Source of the DNA: Leptolyngbyaceae cyanobacterium
GTDB lineage: Bacteria > Cyanobacteriota > Cyanobacteriia > Cyanobacteriales > Aerosakkonemataceae
Reading direction: 5' to 3'
Assembly (NCBI GenBank): GCA_036703985.1
Contig: DATNQN010000010.1
Span: 1-64,000, forward strand
DNA length: 64,000 nucleotides
The translations under genes and the position numbers were made by a program. Position 1 is the stretch's first letter. Each line of letters begins with the position of its first letter. This document shows, piece by piece, positions 1-40,134 of the stretch. The notes under the pieces were generated by a model, which had not been told where the DNA came from, did not search any database, and saw only the letters and a program-made list of their open reading frames with translations.

Positions 1-90
1 GAGATGGGGGGATGGGAAGATGGGGAAAACTAGTTAATTTTTATCCTTCATACTTCATACTTCATCCTTCATCCTTCATCCTGGCTCCTG
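1..90 (-). repeat. Bipartite dispersed repeat, copy 1
   Basis: Read on the minus strand this is a run of GGATGAAG/TATGAAG heptamer-like units, then the core ATAAAAATTAA, then CCCCATC units. The same arrangement is present on the plus strand near 50.2, 57.3 and 60.5 kb. No coding potential is visible here. It precedes the UbiB-family gene by about 100 bases, so part of it may lie in that gene's promoter region. Confidence 0.6.
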
Positions 91-191
91 AATTCTCATT
101 TCACATATAACCGAACTAAGGGATGGTACAGTGTTCGCCTGAGTCATTGTTACAATGTTTAACATAGCCACCCCAACTCGGTGCAAAATCC

Positions 192-2276
192 ATGAATCTC
201 AAGAAGGTATCGCCAGTCGCATCTAATTTTTACCAAGAGACAGGGCTGACAAAGCCAGGATATCCAACAGCAACTACGAATAACACTGGTGTTGTCTCAC
301 CGATGGTAACAGTAGAATCGGCGTCGATGTCAGATCCTCCAGAAAAACTTGCCACTGTGGTTGAAGCGGAAAGACCGATCCGTTACGATCCGGTAGCGAT
401 CGCCGAACATTATAATCAGCGTCCGCTCCAAGTATGGACTAGATTACTAGGCATCGTATGGCCATTTTTCAATTTTGCCACTCGGTTGTGGTGGGATAAG
501 CGACGGGGACGCATTCCTGAGAACGAACCGAAAAGAGCCATTCAGCTACGTCAAATTTTAACTAAACTCGGCCCTGCCTATATCAAAATAGGACAAGCCC
601 TCTCCACTCGGCCAGACTTAGTTCCTCCCTTATACTTAGAAGAACTAACCCATCTCCAAGACCAGTTACCTCCCTTCCCCAACGAAATAGCATATCAATT
701 TATAGAAGAAGAACTCGGCGCAACACCCGCAGAAATTTATGCAGAATTGTCCCCCGAACCTCTAGCCGCAGCTTCCTTGGGACAAGTTTACAAAGGCAAA
801 TTAAAAACAGGTGAAGTGGTTGCTGTCAAAGTACAACGACCCGACCTGATGCAAAAAATAGCATTAGATTTATATATTGGACGCCAGTTAGCAGCCTGGG
901 CCAAAAAAACTTTTAAATGGTTGCGGAGTGACTTAGTAGCCATTCTGGATGAATTTGGCGATCGCATTTTTGAAGAAATGGATTACATCCAGGAAGGACA
1001 CAACGCCGAACGATTCGAGAAACTTTACGGTCATATCCCAGATATCTACATCCCCAAAATTTACTGGGAATATACCCACCGTCGCGTTTTAACGATGGAA
1101 TGGGTAACCGGTACTAAATTAACCAATTTAGAAGCCATTCAAAAACAAGGAATCGATGCTCGTCATTTAATAGAAGTCGGCGTCCAATGTTCCTTACGCC
1201 AATTATTAGAACACGGCTTTTTCCACGCCGATCCCCACCCCGGTAATTTATTAGCTACTCCAGAAGGCAAATTAGTTTATCTGGATTTTGGCATGATGAG
1301 TGAAGTTAAACCATATCAGAGATATGGATTAATTGAAGCCGTTGTGCATTTAGTCAACCGGGATTTTGAAGGATTAGCCAAAGATTACGTAAAGCTGGAA
1401 TTTTTAACCCCCGAAACCGACTTAACCCCGATCGTCCCTGCATTTGCCGAGGTATTTAATAATGCTTTGGGTGCTAGCGTAGCCGAACTAAACTTTAAGA
1501 GCATCACCGATCAATTATCGGCTTTGATGTACGAATATCCGTTCCAAGTACCAGCTTACTACGCCTTAATCATTCGTTCCCTAGTTACTTTAGAAGGCAT
1601 CGCCATTCAAATCGACCCCAACTTTAAAGTACTCAGCAAAGCTTACCCCTACGTTTCCAAACGCTTGCTTACAGACCAAGCACCGGAATTACAAGCTTCG
1701 TTGCGAGACCTGCTATTTAAAGAAGGAAAGTTTCGTTGGAATCGACTGGAAAATTTATTAAGAAATGCCAAAAATTCACCAGATTTCGATTTAAATATAG
1801 TGTTGGATCAAACTGTAGACTTTCTATTTTCAGAACGGGGCGATTTTATTCGGCAAAACTTAGCTAATGAAATCGTCAATAGTTTAGACAGTCTGACGCG
1901 CAATGCTTTCCATAACTTTACCAATACTTTCTGGGAACGAGTGGGATTAGGCACCAATGGAAATCATCCAGTTACTCGCGAAACTCCCCAAAACGTAGAA
2001 CATATCAAACGCATTTGGCAAATTTTGCAAGAAACACCCGGTTTTGACGCGATGCAACTAGTTCCCTTGATTCCCAACTTGTTATTTAAGCCAGAAACTC
2101 AACAAATGGGTCAGCAAATCGCTGGCGGTTTAGCGCAACGTGCAGTAGCCCGGTTAATTCGGGAGATTTTGATTTCAGAAGAATCTTCAGATGGTAAAAA
2201 AGGCAGCAAAACCTATTCTTCTTCCGAATCATCACCCCCATTAGCCTTACCAGTCTCGAAAAAAGGCTCTAGGTAG
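192..2276 (+). CDS. AarF/UbiB/ABC1K family kinase-like protein
   Basis: Member of the atypical kinase family that supports isoprenoid-quinone metabolism in bacteria and plastids; expected to be membrane associated. All family signatures are visible: KIGQ at residues 132-135, the alanine-rich loop AAASLGQVY, HADPHPGN at 345-352 and the metal-binding DFG starting at 365. The first ~75 residues and the last ~45 (Ser/Lys-rich) look poorly conserved. At 694 residues it is at the long end for the family. Cyanobacteria carry several paralogues, so no symbol is assigned. It appears monocistronic: the next gene is convergent. Substrate cannot be read from sequence. Confidence 0.93.
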   Translation: MNLKKVSPVASNFYQETGLTKPGYPTATTNNTGVVSPMVTVESASMSDPPEKLATVVEAERPIRYDPVAIAEHYNQRPLQVWTRLLGIVWPFFNFATRLWWDKRRGRIPENEPKRAIQLRQILTKLGPAYIKIGQALSTRPDLVPPLYLEELTHLQDQLPPFPNEIAYQFIEEELGATPAEIYAELSPEPLAAASLGQVYKGKLKTGEVVAVKVQRPDLMQKIALDLYIGRQLAAWAKKTFKWLRSDLVAILDEFGDRIFEEMDYIQEGHNAERFEKLYGHIPDIYIPKIYWEYTHRRVLTMEWVTGTKLTNLEAIQKQGIDARHLIEVGVQCSLRQLLEHGFFHADPHPGNLLATPEGKLVYLDFGMMSEVKPYQRYGLIEAVVHLVNRDFEGLAKDYVKLEFLTPETDLTPIVPAFAEVFNNALGASVAELNFKSITDQLSALMYEYPFQVPAYYALIIRSLVTLEGIAIQIDPNFKVLSKAYPYVSKRLLTDQAPELQASLRDLLFKEGKFRWNRLENLLRNAKNSPDFDLNIVLDQTVDFLFSERGDFIRQNLANEIVNSLDSLTRNAFHNFTNTFWERVGLGTNGNHPVTRETPQNVEHIKRIWQILQETPGFDAMQLVPLIPNLLFKPETQQMGQQIAGGLAQRAVARLIREILISEESSDGKKGSKTYSSSESSPPLALPVSKKGSR

Positions 2277-2330
2277 GGCTTGCTGAAAAAGCAGGGGAAA
2301 GGGAAAGCAGAAATTTGTTAACTCTAATTT

Positions 2331-2380
2331 CTGAATTCTGACTCCTGAATTCAGAATTCAGACTCCTGACTCCTGACTTC
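2331..2380. repeat. GAATTC/TGACTCC short-unit repeat
   Basis: Alternating CTGAATTC and TGACTCC units that are partly palindromic (GAATTCAGAATTC). It lies between two convergent genes. Similar units occur after proS near 26.75 kb and before the cyclophilin gene near 34.53 kb. It could fold into a weak bidirectional hairpin, but there is no clear U-tract. Confidence 0.5.
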
Positions 2381-2858
2381 ATCCTTTCCCCTTCAATGCT
2401 TCAATTTCCTGCTTTAATTGTTCATTTTCTGCTTCCAAAGCTTGAATTTGTTTTTGTAGCTTGACTTCCAACTCCTGAATCTCATCCCGTCGCGCTTCTA
2501 ACTCAATAGTACGGCGGGCTAAATCTTGCCTTTCCACGGTCACAGATTGCAGCCCTTGTTCGATTCTTTCCCTTTCCTTCTCCAAAAAAGCTGGGGTGAT
2601 ACCCACTGCGAGATAATTTTTGACCAAATCGATTACCCAATCGGTAGCAGCTTGGATGCTGAGAATCTCTCGACTTGGGGAAAGTTCTATCAAGACCAAG
2701 CAACTTTCTGTTCCCGAATCCAAATCTGCTTGCGCGATCGCGATCGCCTCAGTTTCATCCATTAATGCCCAAGTATATGCAGATTCTTGGCGAGCGATTA
2801 ATCGCAGCTTAGGCTCGCCTGACGATCCTTGCTTTTGCACCTGGGCTAAATGTAGCAT
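2379..2858 (-). CDS. Conserved hypothetical protein with C-terminal coiled coil
   Basis: 159 residues. The first ~90 form a mixed alpha/beta globular part that I cannot assign to a family. From about residue 92 to the end the sequence is almost pure Glu/Gln/Lys/Leu heptads (for example LEVKLQKQIQALEAENEQ), a strong coiled-coil prediction. No signal peptide or membrane segment is visible, so it is probably cytoplasmic and oligomeric. It is convergent with the UbiB-family gene and divergent from the permease gene. Function unknown; probably a cyanobacterial lineage-specific protein. Confidence 0.75.
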   Translation of the reverse strand: MLHLAQVQKQGSSGEPKLRLIARQESAYTWALMDETEAIAIAQADLDSGTESCLVLIELSPSREILSIQAATDWVIDLVKNYLAVGITPAFLEKERERIEQGLQSVTVERQDLARRTIELEARRDEIQELEVKLQKQIQALEAENEQLKQEIEALKGKG

Positions 2859-3152
2859 TGTCTTTATTTTTTACTACCTCACGTCAATTTATAATATCCT
2901 TTCTGCTCAAAGCGTCTCAGTCAACCAGGTAAAATTTAAGCCTGCTTGTTGAGTCGTTCCAAAAAAGTTTATACCAATTCACTTGAAAGCTGTCATAAAT
3001 CTTTCTGCTTAATTCATACACCCTTAGACCTACTTCCCCTGCCCAAATAGCAAATATGACAGGATTTAAGTAAATGGTTTTCCCTTTTTCTATTCCCTTT
3101 CCCCGTTTTCTGCCCGTTTTTTCCAGGAAAATCAAATCAAACTCAAGCATAT

Positions 3153-4763
3153 ATGCAAACGATCGCAACCTCTCCACGCTGGCTAGTTCGCCGAGACATC
3201 GATGGATTCTTTGGACTAGCACTGGACAATTTTATTCAAATTCTCCTGATCGTCAATCTCTGTAGCGGGGTTCTCGGCTTCTCCCCCACTCTGATTTACG
3301 GACGTATCCTACCAGGAGTCGCACTCAGTTTAATCGTAGGCAACATATATTACAGTTGGCTGGCTTACCAGCAAGCGAAAAGGGAACAACGCGATGATAT
3401 CACTGCTTTGCCTTATGGTATCAACACAGTTAGTTTGTTTGCTTACATTTTTTTGGTCATGTTGCCAGTTAAATTGGCGGCACTGGCTAACGGTGCTTCT
3501 ACCGAACAAGCCGCCGAACTAGCTTGGCAAGCAGGTTTGGTAGCTTGCTTGGGCAGTGGCATCATTGAATTTGGCGGTGCTTGGATTGGCAATATGTTGC
3601 GCCGCATGGCACCCCGCGCCGCCTTGCTCTCTACTCTAGGCGGAATTGCCATTACTTTTATTGCGATCGGCTTTTTATTTCGCACTTTTGCCAATCCAGT
3701 GGTCGGTTTAGTGCCTTTAGGGGTAATTCTTCTCACTTATTTCGGTGGCGTGCGCTTTGGGATTCCCGGCGGTTTGCTGGCAGTGTTGCTGGGAATTGCC
3801 CTAGCTTGGGCAACCGGATTGATGAGTTGGGATAATGCTCGATTTGCGGCAGCTTTACAACCGATTGGGGTTTACTTACCGGGTTTTTGGTTGGGGGACT
3901 TATGGGCTGCTAGGGGAGTCTTGCTGGAATATCTCAGCATTATCCTTCCGATGGGAGTATTTAACCTGATTGGTAGTATTCAAAATCTGGAAAGTGCAGA
4001 AGCAGCCGGAGACTCTTACCCGGCTGCCCCTTGTCTGGCAGCTAATGGCATCGGTACTCTGGTGGCGGCTATTTGCGGTTCCTGTTTCCCTACCACTATT
4101 TATATCGGTCATCCCGGTTGGAAGGCTTTGGGGGCAAGGGTGGGATACTCGGTTCTCAATGCGATCGCGATGGGTTTGTTATGCTTGAGCGGTACGGTTG
4201 CCTTACTTGCTTATTTCGTACCTATAGAAGCGGGAATGGCAATTGTTTTATGGATCGGTATTGTCATTGTCGCTCAAGGTTTTGAAGTAACCCCACGCCA
4301 TCACGCCCCAGCAGTAGTGGTTGGTTTGTTACCCGCGATCGCGGCTTGGGCAGCGCTGATCGCCAAAAACTCCTTGCGTGCGGCTGGTTTGGGGACGCCA
4401 GATCGACCTTTAACTCCCGATTTAGTGCCTCTGTTTAAATTGAGCGACACTTATATTGATGGTGCTTTTGCCTTAGAACAAGGTTTTATTTTTTCAGCTA
4501 CCATTCTTTCAGCGATCGCGGTGTTTATCATAGAGCGACAGTTTCTTCAGGCAGCATACTGGTCTTTAGGTGCGGCTGTCCTCTCCTGGGTAGGTTTGAT
4601 GCACAGCTATAATTGGACGCCTGCCGATACGGTGATTAAGCTGGGTTGGGGTGCTGGAAGTGCTTGGGCTGTCGGCTATATCTTGCTGGCAATTCTCTTT
4701 TTCTATGCGGCTTTTACTACTAAAAATACCAGGCAACCTCAGCCAGAATCACCACCCAATTAA
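3153..4763 (+). CDS. NCS2-type (xanthine/uracil permease-like) membrane transporter
   Basis: 536-residue polytopic membrane protein with about 12 hydrophobic segments. The N-terminal part (GFFGLALDNFIQ, then LPYGINTVSLFAY near residues 83-97) resembles the divergent branch of nucleobase:cation symporter-2 permeases, and Gly/Ala-rich helices follow throughout. Substrate is unknown; purines, pyrimidines or another small solute are possible. The start chosen is the ATG followed by QTIATSPRWLVRRD, which puts a basic segment before the first helix. The short leader has no obvious riboswitch. No linked metabolic gene gives a substrate clue. Confidence 0.8.
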   Translation: MQTIATSPRWLVRRDIDGFFGLALDNFIQILLIVNLCSGVLGFSPTLIYGRILPGVALSLIVGNIYYSWLAYQQAKREQRDDITALPYGINTVSLFAYIFLVMLPVKLAALANGASTEQAAELAWQAGLVACLGSGIIEFGGAWIGNMLRRMAPRAALLSTLGGIAITFIAIGFLFRTFANPVVGLVPLGVILLTYFGGVRFGIPGGLLAVLLGIALAWATGLMSWDNARFAAALQPIGVYLPGFWLGDLWAARGVLLEYLSIILPMGVFNLIGSIQNLESAEAAGDSYPAAPCLAANGIGTLVAAICGSCFPTTIYIGHPGWKALGARVGYSVLNAIAMGLLCLSGTVALLAYFVPIEAGMAIVLWIGIVIVAQGFEVTPRHHAPAVVVGLLPAIAAWAALIAKNSLRAAGLGTPDRPLTPDLVPLFKLSDTYIDGAFALEQGFIFSATILSAIAVFIIERQFLQAAYWSLGAAVLSWVGLMHSYNWTPADTVIKLGWGAGSAWAVGYILLAILFFYAAFTTKNTRQPQPESPPN

Positions 4764-5824
4764 CTGAAAGATTGTCAGGAAATTTAGCAAAAATTAAAGA
4801 AATAATTCGGGATTCAGCAGTTATGATTAAGTAGTTAAAATGATTCTGACTCATGGCTGCTGAATCATCAAGCATACTTTTTATTGTTCTAGGTTTGAGG
4901 GGTAATATTAATTTACAAAATGAATGATAAATATTATCTTGTAGGTATGGGTTTTGTTGAAAGTTAAACTATCCGTAGCCTAAGATTAGCCTTTACAAAT
5001 TATTTGTACAACCTTAACGTGAAATGGTATAGGCCAATCACTTATGTAACTTAATTTTCTACTTAGAGAACTATGATAGCTTAGTTTAAGTAGTTTTGCC
5101 GAATCTAACTTTATACTAAATTTAGATGCTAGACAATTAACACAATCTTAAATTTTTGCTAAAAAATTTTATACTAGTTGTCTAAATTAGAATTTATTTG
5201 CTAAATTCTACTAGGTAAATAGTAACGGGATGCCAACCAACGTAGACTCAGGTCTTGCTCCAGGCATAGAAACCAGGTTTCTTGCAAATAGCTAAATTGG
5301 AAAACCTATATTTTTCGTGAAGAAATCCGGTTTCTTAAGTCTTTTTGAGAATGGTGCAAGATCTGAATAAAGAAAAAATAATTCTGTAACAAAGATAATA
5401 AAGCATTAACGATTGGATATGTAAAATTTGTTTTTTTACATACAATATCCTCTTGATTAAAGAAGCAATTAATATTATTTAGACGGGAATTTACTTAACT
5501 AAACTTAAATTACTAAATGATTAATTATACTCTTTACCAAATGCGATCGTTATGCCAAGATCTAATAGCACTAAGTAAAAGCCTTTTTGTTGAAATTGGT
5601 CATATAGATGTAGTTAAGAGATAGAACCTACTAAAGTAAATTACTATTTCACAACTCCAGTTAATTATGCCATGACAAAGGCTAATGTTTGTCTATCTTA
5701 GTGTTTTGTAAAATTTTCTCCAAAATACTAGGAAATATTAACCTAAATTTGCGGAAATTTTATAAAAAGCAACAAAAGTCCAACAAAGTTTATCTTTAAT
5801 ATTTACAAGGGGACAAGTTTCATC
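4764..5824. other. 1 kb AT-rich spacer upstream of the multicopper oxidase
   Basis: Very AT-rich, with stops in all frames and no RNA gene that I can recognise. The only structured part is the MITE-like element at 5249-5365. The last 20 bases contain AAGGGGA, a plausible ribosome-binding site set 10-12 bases before the oxidase ATG. The length suggests a long promoter/leader region for a regulated exoprotein gene. Confidence 0.6.
5249..5365. mobile_element. MITE-like element with terminal inverted repeats
   Basis: Ends are CAGGTCTTGCTCC and GGTGCAAGATCTG, which are inverted repeats matching at 11 of 13 positions. Inside are two GAAA(C/T)C(A/C)GGTTTCTT boxes about 50 bases apart. It carries no protein. 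The left end resembles the sequence just after the oxidase stop codon (GGGTCTTGCCGCAGTGCTA then AAACCGAGTTT), so both belong to one dispersed family. Non-autonomous transposition is an inference from the terminal repeats. Confidence 0.5.
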
Positions 5825-37408: not shown

Positions 37409-38815
37409 ATGCAGGTAACAGAAGCTCAAGATAAATGCCTCAATTGTTTGGGACGGGCCATTAAAGAGTTAAATGGGGAAGCTACACCCAGCCAATTAGA
37501 GCAAATTGCAGAACTAATCAGCCAAACAATGACAGGCCCTTGGCGATTTTTTCATACTCCAGAACACATTTTTGAGGTAGGGAGCACGGAAGAACCAGTT
37601 GATGTGTTAGCGGCTTTGTTCCACGACTTGGTATACGTGCAAGTTGATAATGGCATCAGCCTCAATATCAGCAGCTACATCACGCCATTTGTCAAGGATG
37701 TTCGCGGACATATCGTAATTCGCGAATCGGATGAACTACCTAAAGAACACGGATTCAATATTGTAGCATCTGTATTTGGCTTTTCTCCATGCCAAACTCT
37801 TTCTCCATTTGCCGGACAAAATGAATTTTTGAGTGCAGTGATTGCTGCTAAATGTCTGGAGAATATTTTGCCTGAGAGTATCATCGCTGAAATAGCAGCT
37901 TGTATAGAAGCAACAATTCCATTTCGTCCTAAATTGGAATCTGGTTTAACTGCAATGGATTTGCTGTATCAGCGAATGATAAATATCAGCAATCAATATA
38001 ACTTTGGATGGACAGAAGAAAAAGCTGCTGATGTAGTTAAGCGAGCAGTTAGATTAGCTAATCGGGATGTGAAAAATTTTGCTTATCACAATTCAGCCGA
38101 TTTTTTAGACAATACATGGAATCTATTACCAGAAACTAATCACGAATTAAGTAATGCTAATTCTTACACGGTGAACGGATATCGTAAATCTTTGCAGAAG
38201 ATGGAAGGTTTTATGAACTTCCTGAAACCGGAACTGGTGTTTCAACAGTTTATGGGAGAACCAGACGATCGAATATATCAAGAACTAATTTCTAGAACAA
38301 GTAAAAACTTGGAAGTTGCTAGACTTTATTTGGGAAGCAAACTAACTGCGGTGGCTATTCTTGAAGCACTTTCTTATCGGATGGGACAGGATATTCCAAT
38401 TTCTACTATGATGGGAGAACTGTCGAGTAGAAAACTCAATATGGTCGCTTTGGAAAACTTTATCCCAGATGTTACGGAAGGTCATCAGCCAAGAAATGCG
38501 CTAGAAAGTGAGGTGTTAGACTTATTATCTAAAGGACGTAATCGAGAATCTTCTTACGATTTAAAACATTCTCCAATCACTACTTTTATTATCAAATACA
38601 TGGGTTTCGATCGCGTAGGAGATCTCTTGCGAAAAGCCAAAGAATTTTTTAAAGAAACTCAAAATACTAAGACAGGGGAATTTTTTAAGGAAAATCAAAA
38701 TCTCAAGGCAGAGGAATTTCTCAAAGAGTGCGATCCCGAAGTTATCAAAATGTTAACTGAAGCAGTAGAAAAACTTTTCGATAGTCGAAAAATTGCATTA
38801 CGACGAGTTAATTAA
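37409..38815 (+). CDS. HD-like phosphohydrolase-related protein of unknown function
   Basis: 468 residues. The N-terminal part carries an HD-type pattern: FFHTPEHIFEV with His49 and His53, then ALFHDLVYV with His72-Asp73, as in predicted metal-dependent phosphohydrolases of the HD superfamily. A later downstream conserved Asp would be NRDVKNFA. The rest is mainly helical and unassigned; near the C-terminus a unit repeats imperfectly (EFFKETQNTKTG, EFFKENQNLKAE, EFLKECDPE). I start at the ATG after GGGGAGG, not at an upstream TTG. Possible nucleotide or second-messenger hydrolase; unproven. The STAS-like/PIN pair follows after about 200 bases. Confidence 0.7.
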   Translation: MQVTEAQDKCLNCLGRAIKELNGEATPSQLEQIAELISQTMTGPWRFFHTPEHIFEVGSTEEPVDVLAALFHDLVYVQVDNGISLNISSYITPFVKDVRGHIVIRESDELPKEHGFNIVASVFGFSPCQTLSPFAGQNEFLSAVIAAKCLENILPESIIAEIAACIEATIPFRPKLESGLTAMDLLYQRMINISNQYNFGWTEEKAADVVKRAVRLANRDVKNFAYHNSADFLDNTWNLLPETNHELSNANSYTVNGYRKSLQKMEGFMNFLKPELVFQQFMGEPDDRIYQELISRTSKNLEVARLYLGSKLTAVAILEALSYRMGQDIPISTMMGELSSRKLNMVALENFIPDVTEGHQPRNALESEVLDLLSKGRNRESSYDLKHSPITTFIIKYMGFDRVGDLLRKAKEFFKETQNTKTGEFFKENQNLKAEEFLKECDPEVIKMLTEAVEKLFDSRKIALRRVN

Positions 38816-39017
38816 ACTACCTAACTAAAAACAATCTAGCTTTCGTGATGCGGTCAAACTAACTTGAATTGATAAGCTGATGAAGCTTGAATAGAATAAA
38901 ATCAATTGCCACCATAGGCAAAGCTAATTTAATGCGAATACTCCCGAGCATTCTCAGGGACTATTCTTTGCTTTTGTCTGGTAAAATTGTATATCAGTAA
39001 AACTACTGTTTTTAATT

Positions 39018-39413
39018 ATGAGTCTTTTAAAATCTTGCGAATGGGAAAGCGGGAATAAAGTCAAGATAGTAGTTGCTGAAGTTATTGGAGATAATTTATG
39101 TATTGCATCGGAAGATGGTCGGAAAGTTTATGAGAAGATTGCAAATGCTTTTAAAGAAGGTAAAAAAGCGATCGTTTCTTTTCAGGATGCGGAGGATGTT
39201 ACTTCAGCTTTTTTAGCAGAAGCAATCGGTCATTTGTATGCAGAATTTCCGGAACAACAAATAGCCTCATGTTTAAATGTGGTGGATATCGAACCTGATG
39301 ATGCAGCAGACCTTGAGGATACGATTTTTTGGGTAAAAAAATATTTAGAAGACCCGGAAAAATGGGAGGCGGCTGCCAGAGAAGCTTTTGGGGAATATTA
39401 TTTTGACGAATAG
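39018..39413 (+). CDS. STAS-like domain protein (DUF4325 type)
   Basis: 131 residues. The strand-helix pattern VSFQDAEDVTSAFLAEAIGHLYAEF, read in short blocks, is the hallmark of STAS-like DUF4325 proteins, which resemble anti-sigma-factor antagonists; the Thr-Ser pair at VTSAF occupies the site where STAS proteins are phosphorylated. An acidic C-terminal helix follows (PDDAADLEDTI and WEAAAREAFGEYYFDE). The 3' end overlaps the start of the PIN gene, so the two are coupled; this protein is a candidate antitoxin or switch for it. Confidence 0.8.
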   Translation: MSLLKSCEWESGNKVKIVVAEVIGDNLCIASEDGRKVYEKIANAFKEGKKAIVSFQDAEDVTSAFLAEAIGHLYAEFPEQQIASCLNVVDIEPDDAADLEDTIFWVKKYLEDPEKWEAAAREAFGEYYFDE

Positions 39414-39951
39414 CTTAGTTCACCCCATCAATGATTACAAATTTAGCCATTTAGATGCAGTCTTATTTGATGCAAATATTTGGCTATATATTTATGGGCC
39501 GCAAGGTGAGCGTTCTCCTAAAATTAGAGATATTTATACTTTAGCATTAAGACGAATCCGCAGTGTCAAAGGTCGGATATTACTCGATGGTTTCGTGCTT
39601 TCTGAATTTATTAATGCTTATGCAAGATTCTTTTATAATGAGTTACCTACAGTTACCAAAGCAGCCGAGTTCAAAATTTATCGAAAAAGTCATGAATTCC
39701 GCCCGGTTGCTCAGAAAATAGCCAGACAATCGCGGAAAATTTTGGAAAAATGCGAACGAATAGAGAGTGGCTTTGAGTTAGTAGATTTAGGGGTAATATT
39801 GAGGCATTATTCCTTAGGAGAAGCCGACTTTAACGATCAGATGTTGGCTGAATTGTGTAGGACAAAGGAACTGAAACTAGTCACTCATGATGTGGATTTT
39901 AAAGGTGAAGGTTTGGTGATTTTGACTGGGAATCCTAATTTGATTGGATAA
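39403..39951 (+). CDS. PIN domain protein paired with STAS-like protein
   Basis: 182 residues from the TTG that follows GGGGAATATTAT; a TTG 15 bases upstream is also possible. PIN core acidic residues: Asp23 in LFDANIWLY, Glu in LSEFINAY, Asp in EADFNDQML, Asp in VTHDVDF. Somewhat longer than VapC because of a helical insert (ARFFYNELPTVTKAAEF). Likely a metal-dependent RNase. Overlap with the STAS-like gene points to a two-gene module of toxin-antitoxin type; this pairing is not a standard named TA family. Confidence 0.82.
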   Translation: MTNSLVHPINDYKFSHLDAVLFDANIWLYIYGPQGERSPKIRDIYTLALRRIRSVKGRILLDGFVLSEFINAYARFFYNELPTVTKAAEFKIYRKSHEFRPVAQKIARQSRKILEKCERIESGFELVDLGVILRHYSLGEADFNDQMLAELCRTKELKLVTHDVDFKGEGLVILTGNPNLIG

Positions 39952-40134
39952 ATCAATTGGATGTTTTAAATTAAATTAATGATATATTTGATTGTTGTTG
40001 ATATGAGAGAAATTTTTATTTTTATCGCAGATAGAAGAGGATTAACGCAGATAAACGCAGATGAATTTATTATTTTTTGATGGTGTATAATTGATGCTTG
40101 AATAGGAAAAAAATTTTGATTTTGGGTTGAAAAG

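What the first reader, a model, noticed from the sequence alone, without database searches (positions are those of the whole stretch)
37409..39951. HD-like protein followed by an overlapping STAS-like/PIN pair: candidate new two- or three-gene system
A STAS-like protein (DUF4325 type) overlaps by 11 bases with a PIN-domain RNase-like protein. Overlap and order match toxin-antitoxin logic, but a STAS-like partner is not the usual antitoxin fold, so regulation could be by phosphorylation of its Thr-Ser site. An HD-like phosphohydrolase-related gene precedes them by about 200 bases and could supply or remove a nucleotide signal.
Basis: partly seen in the sequence, partly recalled or inferred. Interest (0 to 1): 0.55.

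Follow-up and report, generated by a model that had tools for sequence, protein, structure and literature searches.

The report
Toxin–antitoxin pair missing its kinase
Two overlapping cyanobacterial genes look like the toxin and antitoxin of a recently described bacterial defence module, but without the kinase that normally switches it on; the neighbouring HD-like gene is not part of it.

Summary
The STAS-like gene (39018-39413) and the PIN gene (39403-39951) are real and overlap by 11 bases. They are homologues of VapS and VapC, antitoxin and RNase toxin of vapKSC, an anti-phage toxin-antitoxin module published in June 2026 (PMC13373217). The STAS protein matches solved Escherichia VapS (9z7o_A, E 1.2e-7); a PIN profile matches only Escherichia VapC (9z7o_C, E 2.3e-8). 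In a scan seeded with PIN proteins, 78 of 78 loci carry VapS directly upstream. Elsewhere a STAS-GHKL kinase (VapK) completes the operon; here none was found beside the pair or in the genome. Kinase-less pairs form a cyanobacterial and a Methanosarcina clade nested among kinase-bearing ones. The VapS switch residue is Ser/Thr in 51 of 51 kinase-linked VapS but Pro, Trp or Arg in 21 of 44 kinase-less ones; the window keeps its Ser. The HD-like gene is unrelated: in four relatives it sits directly beside a thiL-like gene, and in the window the pair lies between the two. Verdict: a new kinase-less variant of a known kind. No function was tested.

The parts
39018..39413 (+). vapS-like gene: DUF4325/STAS-fold protein, 131 aa, predicted antitoxin
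   Evidence: PF14213 6.3e-15; 9z7o_A Escherichia VapS E 1.2e-7; adjacent to the PIN gene in 78 of 78 loci
39204..39206 (+). codon of VapS Ser63, equivalent to the Escherichia VapS Ser48 phospho-switch residue
   Evidence: alignment with 9z7o_A; chain residue 66, taken as Ser48 after an 18-residue tag (my inference from the numbering)
39403..39951 (+). vapC-like gene: PIN-domain protein, 182 aa from TTG 39403, predicted RNase toxin
   Evidence: PF01850 2e-7; profile A1 hits only 9z7o_C Escherichia VapC in the PDB, E 2.3e-8; D23, E68, D142, D145, D163 and D165 invariant in 29 of 29 aligned homologues
39469..39471 (+). codon of VapC Asp23, first acidic active-site residue of the PIN fold
   Evidence: invariant in 29 of 29 rows; its role as a catalytic residue is from general knowledge of PIN domains
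39403..39413 (+). 11-base overlap of vapS stop and vapC start (expected translational coupling)
   Evidence: sequence; overlapping ORFs in 74 of 82 loci
38816..40134 (.). stretch holding the pair between the HD-like gene and the thiL-like gene; 60-125 bases in four relatives, 1319 bases here

Best explanation
The pair is a kinase-less form of vapKSC ('VapSC'). VapC is a PIN-domain RNase toxin. VapS is a STAS-fold antitoxin that binds VapC, with its C-terminal helix reaching towards the active site. The genes overlap, which should couple their translation, antitoxin first. In the full system VapK (STAS-GHKL kinase) is proposed to phosphorylate one Ser/Thr of VapS and release VapC. No VapK was found in this genome, so the pair most likely behaves as a two-gene, type II-like toxin-antitoxin module whose toxin is freed when the labile or limiting antitoxin is lost, or by another kinase acting in trans. 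Shown here: homology to VapS and VapC, strict pairing, intact active-site residues, no VapK detected, nesting of kinase-less clades among kinase-bearing ones, loss of the phospho-site only on kinase-less branches, position between unrelated genes. Shown by others for the Escherichia homologue: toxicity, neutralisation, loss of neutralisation by Ser48Glu, the crystal structure, phage protection. Inferred: that the window pair does the same, and how it is released.
For: VapS: 9z7o_A E 1.2e-7; VapC profile: 9z7o_C 2.3e-8, the only hit at E<=1. 78 of 78 loci pair VapS with VapC. A VapK-seeded viral scan gave 7 loci, 6 followed by VapS then VapC, the 7th ending at the contig edge. VapK absence: G000 and G252 none at 1e-10 (G000 has only two weak matches inside ORFs of over 1000 aa). 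Of 33 other kinase-less genomes, 28 none at 1e-5, 1 only a weak match inside a 773-aa ORF, 1 a 77-aa remnant, 3 a full VapK; positive controls 5 of 5. Tree: kinase-less cyanobacteria (31 rows, 98*) and Methanosarcina (17 rows, 98*) inside kinase-bearing rows; 4 changes of kinase state. Phospho-site Ser/Thr 51 of 51 with kinase; Pro/Trp/Arg 21 of 44 without. VapC active site 29 of 29.
Against: No toxicity or binding test was run. The window VapS keeps the Ser, as do 23 of 44 kinase-less VapS in all, so kinase control in trans is not excluded; the genome holds at least five small RsbW/SpoIIAB-type HATPase ORFs of 144-173 aa. With the phylogeny taken into account the kinase/phospho-site link rests on 2-3 site losses, and the paired-contrast test cannot reach significance (3 supported pairs; 1 agrees, 2 do not differ). 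In 3 of 35 kinase-less genomes a full VapK exists at a separate locus. Identity to the Escherichia-type cyanobacterial VapC and VapS is only 23-24%.
Confidence: 0.75

Rival explanations
1. The pair is still phospho-controlled, but in trans: one of the genome's small RsbW/SpoIIAB-type kinases, or a Hanks-type kinase, phosphorylates VapS Ser63 and releases VapC.
For: Ser63 kept; at least five small HATPase_c_2 ORFs in the genome; 23 of 44 kinase-less VapS keep Ser/Thr.
Against: No conserved kinase was seen beside the pair in the loci examined; other kinase-less lineages lost the residue, so the module seems to persist without it there. [quoted passage not shown]
Confidence: 0.25
2. Domesticated pair: VapC is a housekeeping RNase whose level or activity VapS tunes, not a toxin.
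For: Similar chromosomal neighbours in several Calothrix loci (a cinA-like gene, name recalled) and in several Methanosarcina loci; no defence gene recognised beside the window pair (neighbours were not searched one by one).
Against: Patchy presence (2 of 291 in the class; 5 of 60 among relatives), position between unrelated genes, tandem copies, and broken VapC with intact VapS in L111 and L127 look like toxin-antitoxin dynamics.
Confidence: 0.12
3. The reader's three-gene system, HD-like protein plus STAS plus PIN.
For: Same strand and a 202-base gap in this one genome.
Against: No HD-like homologue in any of the other 81 loci searched for it; HD in 73 of 291 genomes, PIN in 2 of 291, G252 has PIN without HD; HD-thiL adjacency without the pair in 4 relatives.
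Confidence: 0.02

Closest known systems
vapKSC (Chambers et al. 2026, EMBO J, PMC13373217; PDB 9Z7O)
   Same: Homologous VapS (STAS antitoxin) and VapC (PIN toxin), same order, switch Ser present in the window protein, PIN acidic residues intact.
   Different: No VapK found next to the pair or elsewhere in the genome; a separate VapC subfamily (100* branch in the tree); many kinase-less relatives have lost the switch residue, which the paper calls absolutely conserved. The paper's search was seeded with VapK, so it could not list kinase-less pairs.
VapBC type II toxin-antitoxin systems
   Same: PIN RNase toxin downstream of and overlapping a small antitoxin gene; best Foldseek matches of the VapS-VapC model are VapC toxins.
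   Different: The antitoxin is a STAS fold without a recognised DNA-binding domain. In Escherichia VapSC it does not displace the catalytic metal (PMC13373217).
CapK-CapS regulators; SpoIIAB-SpoIIAA and RsbW-RsbV partner switches
   Same: GHKL kinase plus STAS substrate logic in kinase-bearing relatives; the VapK model best matches SpoIIAB of the SpoIIAB-SpoIIAA complex, Z 10.6.
   Different: Here the STAS protein faces an RNase, not a sigma factor or DNA, and no dedicated kinase was found.

Membership tests
vapKSC | VapS: STAS-fold protein with short C-terminal region | tested here: met
   9z7o_A E 1.2e-7; median of 66 residues after the switch site in kinase-bearing and kinase-less rows alike
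vapKSC | VapC: PIN-domain nuclease of the Escherichia VapC kin | tested here: met
   profile hit 9z7o_C 2.3e-8; active-site residues invariant 29 of 29
vapKSC | VapK STAS-GHKL kinase in the operon | tested here: not met
   none adjacent; none in the genome at 1e-10, two weak matches inside ORFs of over 1000 aa
vapKSC | Conserved Ser/Thr switch residue in VapS | tested here: met
   window Ser63 aligned with Ser48; lost in 21 of 44 kinase-less relatives
vapKSC | VapC toxicity relieved by VapS; phage protection | not testable with these tools
   shown for Escherichia only (PMC13373217, section 13)
VapBC | PIN RNase toxin | tested here: met
   PF01850 2e-7; Foldseek VapC matches for a related VapS-VapC model
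VapBC | DNA-binding VapB antitoxin (ribbon-helix-helix, AbrB and the like; recalled) | tested here: not met
   only DUF4325 passes a Pfam cut-off in the antitoxin; NCBIfam gives nothing over cut-off and PADLOC nothing

The most novel reading that the evidence does not exclude
Kinase loss has repeatedly turned a phosphorylation-gated anti-phage toxin-antitoxin module (VapKSC) into stand-alone STAS-antitoxin pairs (VapSC) in cyanobacteria and Methanosarcina. After that, the phospho-switch residue drifts to Pro, Trp or Arg, and the pair takes on a different, kinase-independent trigger.
Probability: 0.5. Interest if true: 0.6.

Novelty: new variant of a known kind. Interest (0 to 1): 0.47.

Why it matters
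If right, a toxin-antitoxin family exists whose antitoxin is a STAS fold that is no longer controlled by its dedicated kinase. Because kinase-bearing, kinase-less and kinase-decaying members can be compared, one can ask directly what triggers a toxin-antitoxin pair, and how a sensor is lost or swapped while the toxin is kept. It also points to likely vapKSC relatives in archaea and in temperate-phage regions next to integrases.

Tried and rejected
HD-like gene as third partner: rejected. PADLOC as a shortcut: no model for the window's proteins; VapK gives only weak DrmA, Cmr3, Pycsar cyclase or PD-Lambda-4_B matches, which I do not interpret. Viral scan with the window PIN protein: 3 stretches matched a pattern, none confirmed. 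Plasmid and phage searches with window VapC, two VapK and a VapS found only Deinococcus gobiensis plasmid P5, a fecal phage contig and Streptococcus phage Javan172. Alignment A5 put PIN rows onto the STAS half and was dropped. Structure models: VapK-VapS read-through (pTM 0.69, mean pLDDT 88.2) and VapS-VapC read-through (pTM 0.73, mean pLDDT 93.6). No coordinates were available to me, so neither interface was judged; 9z7o did not appear among the Foldseek rows shown, whose library ends in April 2026. The phylogenetic contrast test of kinase versus switch residue lacked power. The promoter scan found fewer sites than shuffles give (3 against a mean of 5.3), so no promoter is claimed. Early paper searches with DUF4325, STAS-like, HATPase or partner-switching terms found no report of the system; the VapKSC paper came. 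Passages only of PMC7159879 and PMC13092281 were read and did not describe it.

Full report
Observation. The three ORFs are present as described. The STAS-like protein is DUF4325 (PF14213, 6.3e-15) and the third protein is a PIN domain (PF01850, 2e-7). The HD-like protein matches no Pfam family up to E 1 and no NCBIfam, PADLOC or PHROG family better than E 0.03. The 11-base overlap follows from the TTG start at 39403, which also gives the N-terminus that aligns with homologues.

The pair is a module. A genome scan seeded only with an alignment of four PIN proteins found 103 relatives and kept the best 80, 78 distinct loci. In 78 of 78 a DUF4325/VapS ORF lies directly upstream of the PIN ORF (in L079 and L113 only a piece, cut by the contig edge). 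All four seed proteins also have the STAS neighbour, so the seeds lean that way, but the neighbour was not a search criterion. Kept loci are ranked by similarity to the window, so frequencies of subtypes in this set are not frequencies in nature.

A third gene appears outside the window's clade. In Deinococcus gobiensis plasmid P5, a fecal phage contig and Streptococcus phage Javan172 the order is STAS-HATPase protein, DUF4325, PIN. Of the 78 loci, 32 have the kinase gene near the pair (upstream, or downstream in L075; in several loci it is split into pieces), 41 do not, and 5 have too little upstream sequence to tell. A viral scan seeded with the kinase alignment found 7 loci; 6 continue into VapS and VapC (VapC frameshifted in L127) and the seventh ends at the contig edge.

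Identity. A paper search then showed that this triad was published in June 2026 as vapKSC (PMC13373217; I read the abstract, sections 13, 14, 17 and 33, and passages, not the whole text or supplements). VapS is an antitoxin of the PIN RNase VapC. VapK, a STAS-GHKL kinase thought to be activated by ssDNA, is proposed to phosphorylate VapS Ser48 and free VapC. The Escherichia operon gave about 2-log protection against one phage. The window VapS hits the solved VapS (9z7o_A) at 1.2e-7, with window Ser63 opposite chain Ser66, which I take as Ser48 after an 18-residue tag. The PIN profile hits VapC (9z7o_C) at 2.3e-8 and nothing else up to E 1. Six acidic residues of the PIN active site are invariant in 29 of 29 aligned VapC. 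The best structural match of the VapK part of an AlphaFold model is SpoIIAB from the SpoIIAB-SpoIIAA complex (Z 10.6, 135 residues, 2.7 A).

The window version has no kinase that I could find. No VapK is near the pair, and a VapK profile finds none in the genome at 1e-10; at 1e-3 it finds only two weak matches inside ORFs of over 1000 aa, probably ordinary histidine kinases. G252 also has none at 1e-10. Of 9 more kinase-less genomes, 8 have no match at 1e-5 and one (G339) has a VapK that sits in its own complete vapKSC (L148); 5 of 5 kinase-bearing controls were found. Of 24 further kinase-less genomes searched (25 asked, L098 not held), 20 have no match, one only a weak match inside a 773-aa ORF (G358), one a 77-aa VapK remnant beside an intact Escherichia-type VapS-VapC (G350, L163), and two a full VapK (G366, G373; by record titles these bins also hold the vapKSC loci L110 and L107). 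The class does contain full vapKSC: 18 of 291 genomes match VapK at 1e-10, and in all 10 of these that I fetched for VapK, the genes VapK, VapS and VapC lie in order. So a kinase-bearing form exists beside the kinase-less form in the class.

Evolution. In a VapC tree of 102 rows (L111, L112, L127, L150 and L159 left out), kinase-less cyanobacteria including the window form one clade of 31 rows (98*) and kinase-less Methanosarcina one of 17 rows (98*), both nested among kinase-bearing rows; kinase state changes 4 times at least, the others being L080 and L160 (quick tree, several long branches). L160 was judged on a 5.5-kb stretch only, and its genome has a kinase-like match elsewhere. The VapS switch residue is Ser or Thr in 51 of 51 kinase-bearing rows. 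In 44 kinase-less rows it is Pro, Trp or Arg in 21 and Ser or Thr in 23, the window among the latter. Nine further rows could not be assigned a kinase state (5 Pro, 1 Ser, 3 without the site). Kinase-bearing branches sum to 40.7 and kinase-less ones to 7.0 changes per column, and all site losses (2-3 events) fall on the latter. The paired-contrast test has only 3 supported pairs, of which 1 agrees and 2 do not differ, so this is a pattern, not a proven correlation.

Mobility and the HD-like gene. The HD-like gene is a cyanobacterial family of its own (73 of 291 genomes) with a conserved FHT..HIFEVG...ALFHDLVYVQVD stretch in 30 aligned rows. No homologue of it lies in any of the other 81 loci searched. 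In four family relatives it is followed by the thiL-like gene (name recalled from sequence, not searched) after 60-125 bases, and their VapSC pairs lie elsewhere. In three further relatives the two genes are on different contigs, and two lack the HD-like gene. In the window 1319 bases holding the pair separate the two genes. The simplest reading is that the pair arrived between two genes that have nothing to do with it. A 21-base direct repeat (86%) flanks it at 38881 and 40092, which may be chance.

Mechanism. VapS most likely sits on VapC and blocks it, as shown for the Escherichia proteins. Without VapK, release must come from antitoxin loss, as in type II systems, or from another kinase. 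The genome has at least five small RsbW/SpoIIAB-type ORFs that could act in trans. I favour antitoxin loss because other kinase-less lineages have discarded the switch residue, but for the window itself the retained Ser63 leaves both open.

Novelty. The system type is known. I found no description of kinase-less VapSC in the open library, which lacks most subscription papers and preprints; the supplements of the VapKSC paper could not be read. I therefore rate it a new variant of a known kind.

Noticed in passing
L124 (MK448860.1, Streptococcus phage Javan172) 2989-4781: A VapK-VapS-VapC operon next to the integrase; the VapC ORF (4251-4781) is not annotated in the record, only a 39-aa piece is. 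An HTH gene and a metallopeptidase-like gene lie upstream.
   Followed up: partly
L131 3366-8092 and L127 3860-8347: Viral contigs with HTH, metallopeptidase-like gene, vapKSC, then an integrase or recombinase; the L131 peptidase matches PADLOC capP (5e-7), so a second damage-sensing regulator may sit beside vapKSC, or it is simply the phage's own repressor pair.
   Followed up: partly
L163 (G350, the genome of L046, Argonema antarcticum) 513-1722, - strand: Escherichia-type VapS and VapC intact behind a 77-aa remnant of VapK: a possible snapshot of kinase loss.
   Followed up: partly
L080 (Poribacteria) 2-4321: Kinase-less VapSC between a type III methyltransferase (PADLOC 8.5e-102) and an AAA protein of the PDC-M47A / PD-T4-4_A kind (6.2e-197), i.e. 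a defence-gene setting.
   Followed up: partly
L049 3219-6608; L047 4017-5537; L169 (G294) 2612-4599: Tandem copies: three VapS-VapC pairs in a row in Hormoscilla GUM202, a doubled VapS in L047, two pairs in G294.
   Followed up: no
L075 4610-6549: VapK lies downstream of VapC instead of upstream, so the gene order of the operon is not fixed.
   Followed up: no
L081, L089, L092, L094, L102, L103: Methanosarcina VapSC pairs share an upstream ORF of about 150 aa that resembles the LigD 3'-phosphoesterase domain (name recalled, not searched).
   Followed up: no
window 37409-38815: HD-like family of unknown function, in 73 of 291 genomes of the class and next to a thiL-like gene in four relatives; strongly conserved across 30 rows but without a family model over cut-off.
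   Followed up: partly
window 38881-38901 and 40092-40112: 21-base direct repeat (86% identical) flanking the VapSC pair, possibly a trace of its insertion.
   Followed up: no
L111 4989-5532 and L127 6212-6771: VapC broken by a frameshift while VapS is intact.
   Followed up: no
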